Shown piece after piece: positions 59,124-64,000 of a DNA stretch of 64,000 nt. A model generated the notes under the pieces. The model saw nothing but the letters and a program-made list of their open reading frames with translations. It was not told the DNA's origin and searched no databases. Positions within the stretch are counted from its first letter, which is position 1; every line of letters starts with the position of its first letter. Source of the stretch: Solirubrobacterales bacterium (lineage in GTDB: Bacteria > Actinomycetota > Thermoleophilia > Solirubrobacterales > Solirubrobacteraceae); assembly GCA_026392255.1 (NCBI GenBank), contig JAPLCJ010000017.1, positions 124,001-188,000 of the forward strand, written 5' to 3'. The translations under genes and the position numbers were made by a program.

Positions 59124-60503
59124 ATGCCAATCACTGACCTAGAGACCACTTGGAATCGCATCCGTTCTGATCTGCGCGACGCTGTCAGCGACTCAACGTT
59201 CCAGGTTTGGTTGGAGCCCCTCAGGCCAGCATTGATGGAAGACCACGTTTTAGTCGTAGAAGCCCCGGACTCCATCCGCCACTGGGTGGAGGGCCGTTTC
59301 ACAGACCTCATCGCGCAGGCAGCCCAGCGAGTGACCGGTATCTCCACCACTGTTGAGTTGACCGAGCCAGGAAAAGTCACTGACATTCGCGAGGTCTCAG
59401 CCTCAAGTACGACTCGAGGGTTTGAAAGTGACTCTTTTGCAGGTCCTTCCCAAACCCTCGACTTAGACCCGAAGCTTACGTTCGACCAGTTTGTGATTGG
59501 CGAGAGCAATCGCCTCGCCCACGCGGCAGCATTGGCTGTGGCCGAGCAGCCGTCACAGGCCTACAACCCGCTGTTCATCTACGGCCCACCTGGTGTGGGC
59601 AAGACACACCTACTGCAGGCGATTGGAAATCTTGTCCGTGAAGCCCAACCTGATGCCCGTATTGAGTACACAACAGCCGAGGACTTCACCAACGGTTTTG
59701 TCCACTCGATCCGTCAGGGCGACACTAGGGAGTTCAAGTCTAAGTTCAGGGACGTTGACCTCCTCCTACTTGACGACGCCCAGTTCCTTGCCAGCAAGAC
59801 CAAGACCGAGGAAGAGTTCTTCCATACCTTCAACAGTCTGATCAGTAGTGGTGCTCAGGTTGTAATCACCTGTGACAGAACTCCGGCTGACCTTGACTCC
59901 TTGGAAGCTCGGCTGCGAGAGCGTTTCGCTGCGGGACTAGTTGCAAACGTTGAGAGCCCGGAGATCCCAACTCGGCTTGCCATCCTCACGATGAGGGCAC
60001 AGCGCGACCAACTTGGAGACATACCCCGCGAAACCTTGGAAGCCATTGCCTCAAGGATCAAGGGCAACGTCAGAAGCCTTGAGGGTGCCCTAATCCGTGT
60101 TGTTGCCTATGCCTCACTCACAGGTGTGAAGGTGACGCGTGAGCTGACAACTCAAGTTCTGGATCAGCTTTACCCGGGAGCTACCAACGCTCCAGTCCGT
60201 AAGGGTGTCGGTGAGATCAAGACATTGGTAGCCAGCACGTACGGAGTGACAGAGGCTGACCTCGACTCCCGATCCCGGGCGGCTGAATTTGTTTGGCCTC
60301 GCCAGATCGCGATGTACCTCTCACGCGAGGTTCTTGGTGAACCATTGCCTTCTATTGGTCGTCAGTTCGGTGGACGCAACCACTCAACAGTTCTGAACGC
60401 CTGCCGACGTGTTGCAGACCGGATCTCTGCATCACCTGAAGATGCTCTTGCTATCCGCTCTTTAGAGCGCCTTGTCTCCGGTGAAGCCGACCGGGAAGAC
60501 TGA
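59124..60503 (+). CDS. dnaA: chromosomal replication initiator DnaA
   Basis: 459 residues. Domain [29 protein letters not shown]; domain III AAA+ with [16 protein letters not shown] (Walker A), [12 protein letters not shown] (Walker B), CDRTP (sensor 1); domain [21 protein letters not shown], the DnaA-box-binding signature with Asn in place of the usual Asp. Domain II is short. Confidence 0.97.
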
Positions 60504-60547
60504 AACGATCTTCCGTTATCAACGTAATCAACACAATCATCTGACCT

Positions 60548-61720
60548 ATGTCCTCTACATCTGAAAAGGGAACAATTGGATTGAAGATTGAGCGGGATCT
60601 ACTGCTCGAAGGTCTTCAGTCCGCTACCCGTATCGCATCGTCTAAGACGAGCATCACTGCTCTCAGTGGTGTGCAGCTTGCCGCGGGACCCGAGGGAATT
60701 GAGCTAAGGGCGACTGACCTGGAACTCTCTCTGAGGCTTCCTCTTGCTGGTGAAGTGACTTCGCCTGGCGAGGTAGTCCTCCCAGCCAGACTCTTCACGG
60801 ATGTTGTCCGTGCACTTCCAGCTGGACAGGTGACACTCAAGGCCAGGGCGTCCCAGCAGGATGTAGAGATCACATCCGGGTCTGCAACTTTCGACCTCAA
60901 AACACTGAGGGCAGAAGACTTCCCAACACTCCCTCAGTCGAGTGGAGATTCGGTCGTTGTTCTGCCAGCGGAAGTTCTAGACGCAACTATCCGTCGGGTT
61001 GAGCGGGCTGCCAGCACGGATCCCTCACGGCCAGTCCTGACCGGGGTTCTCGTACAGGCTGAAGCAGGCACCCTCCGAATGGTCGCAACTGACTCTTATC
61101 GGCTAAGCGTCAAGGAAACAAAGTTGGAGACACCGCTCACAAATGGCTTTGAAGCCAACGTTCCAGCAAGAGCTCTCCAGGAAGCTGTCCGTTTAGCTAA
61201 GGGGACTAAGGGCGACCCAGCTGCTGACGGCGAAGAGGCTCTAGCTAAGGGATCAGTCCGGATTGCAGTGCAGGAGAATCAGATTGTCTTCGACCTTGAT
61301 GGCACCGTGCTCGCCTCGCGGCTAATCGACGGTCAATTCCCTAAGTACAAGGAGCTGATCCCGGACGAGTTTGATCATGAGTTGAAGTTCAATAGCGCTG
61401 AGCTGTCCGACGTGGTTCGTCGGATCAGCCTGCTCGCTCAGAGGACTAAGCCACTGACGCTCTCCTTTGAGAAGGGTTCACTCACAATCAGTGCTGAGAC
61501 ACCCGACATCGGTGAGGCAAGGGAATCAATTCCAATTAATTACGACGGTGAGCTACTCGAGATCGGCTTTAACCCCGACTATCTCCGTGATGGAATTGAG
61601 AGCGCTGGCGATGAGGAGATTGTCCTTAAACTCCTAACAGCCAATCGCCCAGGACTGATCGAGTCGGGATCCGAAGGTGGGTTCCTCTATCTGATCATGC
61701 CGATTCGCCTCGGCAGCTGA
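60548..61720 (+). CDS. dnaN: DNA polymerase III beta subunit (sliding clamp)
   Basis: 390 residues in three clamp domains; LKIERDLLLEGLQSATRIASSKTSITALSGVQL start, SGSATFDLKTLRAEDFPTLP in domain I, VATDSYRLSVKE in domain II, and the C-terminal YLIMPIRL that ends nearly all clamps. The 44-base gap after dnaA is AT-richer and holds TTATCAACG, a poor DnaA-box match. Confidence 0.97.
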   Translation: MSSTSEKGTIGLKIERDLLLEGLQSATRIASSKTSITALSGVQLAAGPEGIELRATDLELSLRLPLAGEVTSPGEVVLPARLFTDVVRALPAGQVTLKARASQQDVEITSGSATFDLKTLRAEDFPTLPQSSGDSVVVLPAEVLDATIRRVERAASTDPSRPVLTGVLVQAEAGTLRMVATDSYRLSVKETKLETPLTNGFEANVPARALQEAVRLAKGTKGDPAADGEEALAKGSVRIAVQENQIVFDLDGTVLASRLIDGQFPKYKELIPDEFDHELKFNSAELSDVVRRISLLAQRTKPLTLSFEKGSLTISAETPDIGEARESIPINYDGELLEIGFNPDYLRDGIESAGDEEIVLKLLTANRPGLIESGSEGGFLYLIMPIRLGS

Positions 61721-61740
61721 TCAGGGATTAAGTCGACTGC

Positions 61741-62838
61741 ATGCAGGTCCTCGATCTGGATCTGCGGGACTTTCGTAGTCACCACAGGTTTAACCTCAAA
61801 CCAGGGGCGAGCCTGACAGTCATTGCCGGCCCAAACGGCTCAGGGAAGACCAATATCCTTGAGGCACTTCACTTCGGTCTGACGGGAACCTCCTGCAGAG
61901 CCGCAATGGACCGACAGACCATTGCCTGGAAGGAGTCGACGACCAGGGTTGAGGTTGGTTTCGAGAACAACTCGGTCGTCCACACAACCGCGGTGGCACT
62001 CCAACGGTCAGGGGAGAAGCTGACAACCCTCGACGGCGCAGCACCGGAGCGTTTCGAGGCAGGACTGGATCGCCCGGCAGTGCTGGTGTTCCTCCCAGAT
62101 CGACTTAGTTTGATCACAGGTAGTCCCACAGAGCGTCGATCTCACTTTGACCAGCTAACTGGATCACTTGACCACACATCTTCCGCCCTTAAGGCCTCGT
62201 ATACAAGAGCCCTCACGCAACGAAACGCGTTGCTTGGCTCCGCTCAGAGGACTGGCTCCACTCCAGGTAGCTTGAGCGCCTGGAATGAACAGCTAATCGA
62301 GCTTGGTACAGCGCTAATCCAGTCTCGTGATGAGACCATCACGGCGTTGTCGGAACCGATGGCTAAGGCAGCCGCATCACTTGGTTTGACCGGCGAGCTT
62401 GTTCTTACACATAGGCCTGGTGGAGCTCGGGAGGCCGACGTTTTTCGCAGTGAACTGGAGGAACGGACCGAACAGGACATCAACCGCGGTTTCACGGGGT
62501 ACGGTCCACATCGAGCCGAGTTCATCTTTAAGCGGGAGGGTCACGACCTCAAATCAACTGGCTCACAAGGGGAGAAAAGGATGGCGTTGCTCTCATTGCT
62601 ACTCGCCGAGCGAGAGTTAATTACTCAACGAACTGGAAGTACTCCACTGCTTCTACTGGACGATGTGATGAGTGAGCTTGACGCCGACCGGCGGCAGTTC
62701 CTAACGGACACTGTCTATGGGGTTGGACAGTGTGTGATCACAGCGACTGAGTTTGAGCACGTTCCAGCCCCAACTGATGACGCGGTCGTACTGGTCGCCT
62801 TGGGGCATCCACACGAAGGTGGGTTGCGAGCAGCATGA
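61741..62838 (+). CDS. recF: recombination protein RecF
   Basis: 365-residue SMC-like ATPase for RecFOR gap repair. LRDFRSHHRFNLKPGASLTVIAGPNGSGKTNILEAL (Walker A), FLPDRLSLITGSPTERRSHFD, GYGPHRAEF, STGSQGEKRMALLSLLLAE (signature) and LLLLDDVMSELDADRR (Walker B). Stop overlaps the dciA ATG (ATGA). Confidence 0.95.
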   Translation: MQVLDLDLRDFRSHHRFNLKPGASLTVIAGPNGSGKTNILEALHFGLTGTSCRAAMDRQTIAWKESTTRVEVGFENNSVVHTTAVALQRSGEKLTTLDGAAPERFEAGLDRPAVLVFLPDRLSLITGSPTERRSHFDQLTGSLDHTSSALKASYTRALTQRNALLGSAQRTGSTPGSLSAWNEQLIELGTALIQSRDETITALSEPMAKAAASLGLTGELVLTHRPGGAREADVFRSELEERTEQDINRGFTGYGPHRAEFIFKREGHDLKSTGSQGEKRMALLSLLLAERELITQRTGSTPLLLLDDVMSELDADRRQFLTDTVYGVGQCVITATEFEHVPAPTDDAVVLVALGHPHEGGLRAA

Positions 62839-63131
62839 GACGAGGGAGGGAGAGACCACTCTCTGGTGCAATCAACCGACTTGTTGATTCACTCGCCCCA
62901 ACGGACCCTGTTGCAAGAGTTGCCGGGGCTTGGCCATCACTCGTCGGTGAGGCTATGGCTAAGCACACAAAACCGGTCTCGTTGAAGGGCGGGGAGCTCA
63001 AGATTGAGTGCGCCTCGAGTGTCTACGCGCAGGAGCTTGAGCTGCTTTCGAGGAAGGTCATAAAGGCCCTCACGGAGCGTATTCCAGAGGCGCCTGTAAA
63101 TAGCCTGAGGTGTGTAGTCGCCAAGCGTTGA
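62835..63131 (+). CDS. dciA: DciA-like DUF721 protein (replicative helicase loader family)
   Basis: 98 residues. VARVAGAWPSLVGEAMAKHTKPVSLKGGELKIECASSVYAQELELLSRKVIKAL is the DUF721/KH-like core. DciA interacts with DnaB at replication start in bacteria lacking DnaC/DnaI. Position between recF and gyrB is the usual actinobacterial one. Confidence 0.88.
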   Translation: MRRGRERPLSGAINRLVDSLAPTDPVARVAGAWPSLVGEAMAKHTKPVSLKGGELKIECASSVYAQELELLSRKVIKALTERIPEAPVNSLRCVVAKR

Positions 63132-63205
63132 GAAAAAGGCGAAAAATGCCGCGAAATAGGGCGATTTGGGGGCAATTTGGACCCTTGTTCCGGGGCCTCG
63201 TGTGG

Positions 63206-63211
63206 TATCGT
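63206..63211 (+). promoter_or_regulatory. extended -10 promoter of gyrB
   Basis: TGG-TATCGT (63203-63211), an extended -10. Transcription should start near 63218, immediately before the hairpin described next. Confidence 0.45.
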
Positions 63212-63220
63212 TAGCGATGC

Positions 63221-63283
63221 CTTCAGAGGGGCTTTCAAAACGCTTCAAGCCGCTGTCGCGTTGCCCCGAGTAGCTATCTGAAG
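63221..63283 (+). promoter_or_regulatory. structured 5' leader of gyrB mRNA
   Basis: Three nested perfect stems: CTTCAGA/TCTGAAG (63221-63227 with 63277-63283), GGGGC/GCCCC (63228-63232 with 63263-63267), and AACGC/GCGTT (63239-63243 with 63258-63262), with a 14-base apical loop. The outer 3' arm touches the presumed ribosome-binding bases (GAAGAG, 63280-63285) 13 bases before the ATG. Not a family I recognise. Confidence 0.5.
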
Positions 63284-63295
63284 AGCAACCTCATT

Positions 63296-64000
63296 ATGAG
63301 CGATAAGAACAAGCCAGAGACCGCTGAGACCGGATATGATGCTCAAGACATCACAGTCCTTGAGGGGCTCTCCGCTGTCCGCAAACGCCCTGGTATGTAC
63401 ATCGGTTCAACTGGGCCCAGGGGACTTCACCACCTTGTCTATGAGGTCGTTGATAACTCCGTAGACGAGGCCCTAGCCGGCCACTGCAAGCGGGTTACGG
63501 TCACCATTCACCAGGACCTCTCAGTCACGGTTACCGACGATGGCCGAGGGATTCCGGTCGCCGAGCACAAGACCGAGAAGAAGCCTGCTGTCGAGGTAGT
63601 CCTCACAGTTCTCCACTCCGGTGGCAAGTTTGGTGACGGCGGTGGATACAAAGTCTCGGGTGGCCTCCACGGAGTCGGTGTGTCCGTAGTCAACGCACTC
63701 TCAGAGAAGCTTGAAATCGACATTCGCCGCGACGGGCATCACTGGACTCAGGAATACCGCCGTGGCGATCCACAGAACAAGCTTGTCAAGGGAGAGGCAA
63801 CCTCCGAGACCGGTACGACCATCAAGTTTCTCCCCGACAGTGAGATTTTCGAGACACTCGAGTTTGAGTTCAAAGTCCTTGAAGACAGGCTCCGCGAGAC
63901 GGCATTTCTTACACGTGGCCTGAACATCCTCCTCACGGATGAACGTGAGACGGGAGATGATGGAAAGCATAAGCATGTTGAGTTCGAGTACGAGGGTGGC
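63296..64000 (+). CDS. gyrB: DNA gyrase subunit B, 3' end missing
   Basis: The first 235 codons of the ATPase subunit; it runs off the window. After a short tail ([25 protein letters not shown]) come [35 protein letters not shown] (ATP-binding Asn/Glu), [21 protein letters not shown] and [19 protein letters not shown] of the GHKL ATPase fold. ATG at 63296. Confidence 0.97.

What the first reader, a model, noticed from the sequence alone, without database searches (positions are those of the whole stretch)
63203..63295. Elaborate stem-loop at the 5' end of the gyrB transcript
Seventeen base pairs in three nested perfect stems span 63221-63283, beginning within a few bases of the predicted transcription start and closing against the ribosome-binding bases. 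Such placement could control gyrB translation or mRNA stability, for example in response to supercoiling or a ligand. I do not recognise it as a described motif.
Basis: seen in the sequence. Interest (0 to 1): 0.55.

Follow-up and report, generated by a model that had tools for sequence, protein, structure and literature searches.

The report
Conserved gyrB leader stem-loop
The start of the message for a DNA-supercoiling enzyme (gyrase subunit B) folds into a stem-loop that related bacteria keep although its letters change, so it is probably a real control or protection element, of a familiar kind but not a catalogued one.

Summary
The 17 pairs are present as described (63221-63283); three more (63218-63220 with 63285-63287) extend the outer stem to the predicted first base of the transcript. 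Folding energy alone is only mildly unusual. Comparison is what persuades: the four gyrB leaders held for this genus (two of them near-identical) fold alike with the same start-codon spacing, and 6 of 10 outer-stem pairs change on both sides between species while every pair present stays standard. The two distant relatives beat shuffles (2 and 9 of 1500). Other genera lack this outer stem; 113 of 126 gyrB-bearing family genomes outside the genus match a model of a different gyrB hairpin, GCCCCGG:CCGGGGC. Rfam matched neither. In this genus that hairpin and the Shine-Dalgarno sequence are gone: the outer stem's 3' strand lies where a Shine-Dalgarno would be, and the start codon is left unpaired. 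Best reading: a 5'-end-sealing leader that sets gyrB mRNA lifetime and allows initiation without a Shine-Dalgarno. The mechanism is inferred; supercoiling or ligand sensing is neither supported nor excluded. A new member of a known kind: structured leaders of housekeeping genes.

The parts
63201..63211 (+). Putative extended -10 promoter element TGTGGTATCGT; transcription start predicted at about 63217-63219
   Evidence: TGTGGTA identical in four leaders of the genus; TG[CG]TA at a matching distance in 119 of 126 family leaders; generic sigma-70 scan negative; not mapped
63218..63227 (+). 5' arm of the outer stem (10 pairs with 63277-63287; A63284 bulged)
   Evidence: fold; compensatory changes; shuffle test
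63228..63232 (+). 5' arm of the middle stem GGGGC (pairs with 63263-63267)
   Evidence: no both-sided change seen in L002-L004
63239..63243 (+). 5' arm of the inner stem AACGC (pairs with 63258-63262)
   Evidence: no both-sided change seen in L002-L004
63258..63262 (+). 3' arm of the inner stem GCGTT
63263..63267 (+). 3' arm of the middle stem GCCCC
63268..63276 (+). One-sided 3' internal loop GAGTAGCTA
   Evidence: fold; partly conserved AGTAG in L002 and L004
63277..63287 (+). 3' arm of the outer stem, at the place where sister genera carry a Shine-Dalgarno
63288..63295 (+). Unpaired 8-nt spacer before the start codon, no Shine-Dalgarno
   Evidence: ensemble pairing of -8 to +3 is 0.00 in L002; longest match to AAGGAGGTGA 3 nt
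63296..64000 (+). gyrB, first 235 codons, cut by the window's end
   Evidence: start supported by matching N-termini in the four leaders of the genus

Best explanation
The gyrB mRNA of this genus begins with a self-contained stem-loop that ties its first ten nucleotides to nucleotides 60-70 and ends 8 nt before the start codon. Shown by comparison: the outer stem is conserved through compensatory changes, is peculiar to this genus, and sits where the rest of the family has a different hairpin plus a Shine-Dalgarno. Inferred: by sealing the 5' end it slows 5'-dependent mRNA decay, and by occupying the Shine-Dalgarno position while leaving the start codon open it sets a fixed, Shine-Dalgarno-independent rate of gyrB translation. 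It is a tuning and stabilising leader rather than a ligand switch.
For: Same architecture in the four leaders of the genus; 6 of 10 outer pairs changed on both sides with every pair present standard; outer pairing reached by 0, 2 and 9 of 1500 shuffles for L002, L004, L005; slid partners lose the covariation. 5' end and -19 to -9 mostly paired, -8 to +3 open, unlike the mean of 105 leaders of other genera. No Shine-Dalgarno in the genus, against 107 of 115 leaders elsewhere. Precedents: 5'-UTR stem-loops that stabilise mRNAs (PMC7509114, passages); initiation without a Shine-Dalgarno at unstructured start codons (PMC3121790, search listing and start of abstract only).
Against: No transcript, decay or translation data. 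The transcription start is unmapped. Only three independent sequences. L004's total fold energy is ordinary (287 of 1000 shuffles as good). Model R2 from L002-L004 does not find L005. In B. subtilis delta-ermC a stem-loop placed too close to the Shine-Dalgarno lowered mRNA stability (PMC7509114), so a stem this near the start could act the other way.
Confidence: 0.42

Rival explanations
1. Translational brake: the outer stem blocks entry of the 30S subunit, and gyrB is translated well only when the stem opens (temperature, a protein or RNA partner).
For: The 3' arm lies at -19 to -9 and is paired at 0.76-0.89 in the genus.
Against: There is no Shine-Dalgarno to hide, and the start codon region is open.
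Confidence: 0.28
2. Regulated sensor: a protein (perhaps gyrase itself), a small molecule or supercoiling acts through the leader to feed back on gyrB.
For: Gyrase genes are commonly supercoiling-controlled; in Streptomyces coelicolor gyrBA is strongly activated by relaxation (PMC5055605, passages). The apical sequence is well conserved among L002-L004.
Against: That paper assigns the response to the promoter; the apical sequence is not kept in L005; no alternative conserved fold was sought or found.
Confidence: 0.12
3. Transcription-level element: attenuation by an intrinsic terminator, or hairpin pausing.
For: In other genera the family hairpin is followed by pyrimidine-rich sequence; 18 of 101 have 5 T in 8.
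Against: No terminator-like site in 62800-63500; GAGTAGCTA, not a T run, follows the middle stem here; no family hairpin reaches 6 T of 8.
Confidence: 0.1
4. Chance fold with no function.
For: Fold energy alone is only mildly low (z -1.7 to -2.2).
Against: Compensatory changes and shuffle tests in two distant relatives.
Confidence: 0.05

Closest known systems
5'-UTR stem-loops that stabilise bacterial mRNAs (recA of Acinetobacter baumannii and vacA of Helicobacter pylori in PMC7509114, passages; E. coli ompA recalled)
   Same: stem-loop at or near the 5' end of a leader, upstream of the ribosome-binding region
   Different: no decay data here; the stem ends 8 nt before the start codon and there is no Shine-Dalgarno
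gyrA RNA motif, RF01740 (PMC2864571, one passage)
   Same: candidate leader RNA named for a gyrase gene
   Different: listed for Pseudomonas; no Rfam match in window 60000-64000 or in the leaders of 16 related loci
Supercoiling control of gyrBA in Streptomyces coelicolor (PMC5055605, passages)
   Same: control of gyrase genes in an actinobacterium
   Different: described there as promoter control, not as a leader RNA
Initiation on mRNAs without a Shine-Dalgarno (PMC3121790, listing and start of abstract)
   Same: start codon region without structure and without a Shine-Dalgarno
   Different: here a conserved stem-loop lies just upstream
gyrB leader hairpin of the rest of the family
   Same: same place between promoter and gyrB start, similar leader length
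   Different: different stem sequence and register, 5' end mostly unpaired, Shine-Dalgarno present; R1 does not match the genus's leaders

Membership tests
5' stem-loop mRNA stabiliser | stem closing at or within a few nucleotides of the mature 5' end | tested here: inconclusive
   pairs begin at the predicted start (first five nt paired 0.63-0.96), but the start is not mapped
5' stem-loop mRNA stabiliser | longer mRNA half-life when the stem is present | not testable with these tools
   needs decay measurements
Shine-Dalgarno-sequestering leader or thermometer | a Shine-Dalgarno paired in the stem | tested here: not met
   longest Shine-Dalgarno match in the four leaders is 0-3 nt
Intrinsic-terminator attenuator | GC-rich hairpin directly followed by a U run | tested here: not met
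   0 terminator-like sites in 62800-63500
gyrA motif RF01740 or any other Rfam family | covariance-model match | tested here: not met
   no match up to E=1 in 60000-64000; none in the leaders of 16 related loci
Riboswitch | conserved ligand-binding core and two alternative folds | tested here: inconclusive
   apical sequence shared by L002-L004 is absent from L005; alternative folds were not studied
Family gyrB hairpin (R1) | match to model R1 upstream of gyrB | tested here: not met
   no match in the leaders of L002-L005 with filters off

The most novel reading that the evidence does not exclude
In the Solirubrobacterales the gyrB mRNA carries a dedicated leader RNA that controls gyrase level. 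In this small-genome genus it was rebuilt from scratch: the ancestral hairpin and the Shine-Dalgarno were both discarded and replaced by a 5'-closed fold that itself directs Shine-Dalgarno-free initiation, so one regulatory RNA was swapped for another under unbroken selection.
Probability: 0.17. Interest if true: 0.65.

Novelty: new member of a known kind. Interest (0 to 1): 0.4.

Why it matters
Gyrase level sets chromosome supercoiling. In the one actinobacterial study consulted, control is placed at the promoter (passages). A conserved leader fold, and a second one shared by most of the family that Rfam does not match, would add a post-transcriptional layer; my searches showed no paper on it. 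The genus and its relatives offer a natural before-and-after case of one leader RNA replacing another, together with loss of the Shine-Dalgarno.

Tried and rejected
Generic promoter and terminator scan: 0 and 0. Rfam: no leader match. Model R1 on the genus's leaders: no match with filters off; the three weak genome-level matches of the genus (E 0.58-0.77) were not located. Model R2 on L005: no match. MAFFT on all four genus leaders was poor, so the L005 pairs were read from its own fold. The energy of the 5'/3' duplex alone gave weaker support (101, 56, 74 and 128 of 5000 shuffles). Shine-Dalgarno use by a crude ORF method could not be told from its control (15 against 10 of 54 genes in the window, 5 against 5 of 33, 16 against 14 of 53), so I do not claim the genome is Shine-Dalgarno-poor; the 16S match stops at model position 902, so its anti-Shine-Dalgarno was not seen. 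Outside the family R1 is not specific: in a class sample, 88 of 299 genomes matched at E<=0.01, and several matches outside the family, such as G309 and G317, are on other contigs than gyrB, while G292, G324, G329, G360 and G371 lie upstream of gyrB. Literature: searches found 0 papers; 47, 48 and 50 listed 2, 1 and 2 papers, of which I opened one (PMC4448311, where gyrB is only a table entry); the other four were seen as listings only.

Rows dropped: leaders were read for 128 of 130 gyrB-bearing family genomes (G019 and G023 not fetched, match at a contig end); 126 got a start (the choice favoured a Shine-Dalgarno and a -10); 119 had a -10 motif; 94 passed a hairpin pattern and 76 remained after removing near-duplicates; 66 went into model R1 after 10 more were left out for odd length or shape. 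Covariation counts on that alignment are therefore biased to hairpin-bearing rows, and up to 66 of the R1 matches are to training rows.

Full report
Setting. The window lies in an unnamed 1.66-Mb genome, G000. It carries reading frames that I take, from recall of their translations, for dnaA (59124), dnaN (60548), recF (61741) and a DUF721 gene (62835-63131), and then gyrB from ATG 63296 (gyrB homologues). In a GyrB tree three loci named Solirubrobacterales (L033, L034, L047) fall in one clade with the family of the window's genome (99/99), and the window's genus is a supported clade (100/98). The source is therefore very likely a member of the Solirubrobacterales, class Thermoleophilia.

Observation. 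The minimum-energy fold from the predicted transcription start includes them and adds TGC/GCA at the base, giving a ten-pair outer stem, 63218-63227 with 63277-63287, with A63284 bulged. The energy is only mildly lower than chance: 9 of 200 shuffles, 24 of 1000 from the predicted start, and a z reached by 2.5% of 400 stretches of the window, while 28% have as low a raw energy. Folding alone would not carry the claim.

Promoter. TGTGGTA is identical in the genus's four leaders. A TG[CG]TA element at a matching distance was found for 119 of 126 family leaders with an assigned start, though its presence also weighed in choosing starts. From the TA of this element to the end of the start codon is 93-94 nt in the genus, and the median over the 119 is 88. 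This puts the transcription start at about 63217-63219. It is not mapped, and the generic scan found no sigma-70 consensus.

Comparison within the genus. Four genomes of the genus are held: the window (L002), a close relative (L003, GyrB 97%) and two more distant ones (L004, 85%; L005, 87% over residues 2-152). The four leaders fold with an outer stem between about nucleotides 1-10 and 60-70, a one-sided 3' loop, inner stems, and the start codon at nucleotide 79 or 80. The outer arms differ strongly (3-5 identical letters of 10 or 11), yet the pairing is kept: six of ten outer pairs (3, 5, 6, 7, 8, 10) change on both sides among the species, and every pair present is standard; one pair is absent in L004 and two in L005. 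The L005 register was read from its own fold. In an ensemble test the outer pairing was equalled by 0 of 1500 shuffles for L002, 2 for L004 and 9 for L005; Fisher's method over the three gives 1.7e-6. L002 suggested the structure, and I had seen the folds of L004 and L005 before setting the test regions, so the fairest figures are those of L004 and L005, and they are still somewhat optimistic. On the MAFFT alignment of L002-L004 four pairs change on both sides; 6 of 500 shuffles reach that, and slides of 1-3 columns give 0 or 1. These changes are all in the outer stem; the middle and inner stems show none. Against: R2, built from L002-L004, does not recover L005, and L004's total energy is ordinary (287 of 1000).

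Copy number. R2 has one match at E<=0.5 in the window's genome, the gyrB leader; outside the genus the matches are weak (best E 0.01).

Comparison with the family. Other genera have a different gyrB leader: a stem GCCCCGG:CCGGGGC, then a pyrimidine-rich stretch, a common ACGU, AUCGGAGG and the start codon. R1, built from 66 selected leaders, gave 121 matches at E<=1e-3 in 146 genomes: 113 in sense just upstream of gyrB, 2 antisense at the same place, 3 in genomes without a GyrB match, and 3 elsewhere. So 113 of 126 gyrB-bearing genomes outside the genus have it; at least 47 of these were not in the model. The stem's core scarcely varies, so its own covariation is modest: 84.3% of cells paired, 5 of 10 pairs with a change on both sides. 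Of 40 gyrB leaders from other families (39 of the same order, 1 elsewhere in the class), 9 match in sense at E<=0.01, and several more show a similar stem by eye. R1 does not match the leaders of the window's genus. Of 105 leaders of other genera, 2 have six or more expected outer pairs of the genus's kind. Rfam matched neither structure.

What changed in the genus. A Shine-Dalgarno match of 4 nt or more precedes gyrB in 107 of 115 other leaders (start choice favoured this) and in 0 of 4 here. The region -19 to -9 is paired at 0.76-0.89 (mean of 105 others 0.51), the first five nucleotides at 0.63-0.96 (others 0.22), and -8 to +3 at 0.00-0.16 (others 0.46). The GyrB tree nests the genus in a moderately supported group (86/76) with genera g8, g9, g10 and g11. 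Members of g9, g10 and g11 have the family hairpin, so it is probably ancestral and was replaced. G024 (g8) matches neither model.

Mechanism. Shown: a conserved RNA stem in the gyrB leader of this genus, closed at the predicted 5' end, with an open start codon and no Shine-Dalgarno. Inferred: sealing of the 5' end stabilises the message (precedents in PMC7509114, passages) and the open start supports initiation without a Shine-Dalgarno (PMC3121790, listing and start of abstract). The same review also reports a case in which a stem-loop too near the Shine-Dalgarno lowered stability, so the direction of the effect is open and a brake on ribosome entry is the main rival. An intrinsic-terminator attenuator is not supported here, although 18 of 101 family hairpins are followed by 5 T in 8. 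Ligand or supercoiling sensing remains open: in Streptomyces coelicolor gyrBA responds to relaxation, which that paper assigns to the promoter (PMC5055605, passages).

Known or new. The nearest catalogued RNA by name is the Pseudomonas gyrA motif RF01740 (PMC2864571, one passage). Searches of an open-access library showed no paper on a gyrB leader RNA in this group; most papers of subscription journals are not in it. I file this as a new member of a known kind, a structured leader of a housekeeping gene.

Noticed in passing
63163-63179; leaders printed: About 45 nt upstream of the gyrB -10 many family and order leaders carry a common DNA stretch like ATTTGCAGGGATTTT; the window has GATTTGGGGGCAATTTG. 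It could be a regulator site. Seen by eye, not counted.
   Followed up: no
gyrB leaders of other genera of the family, e.g. L014:1402-1476, L025:1399-1473: A single-copy gyrB leader hairpin GCCCCGG:CCGGGGC with a common ACGU and a Shine-Dalgarno downstream, in 113 of 126 genomes, without an Rfam match; it may deserve a study of its own.
   Followed up: partly
first transcribed bases of family gyrB leaders, e.g. L023 just upstream of 1409: Sequence after the -10 is often alike (TATYCTTCTGTCAACC), as if the initially transcribed bases were under selection; the window differs.
   Followed up: no
L023:465-517 (-): Rfam match to ASdes below its cut-off (31 bits against 40), probably chance.
   Followed up: no
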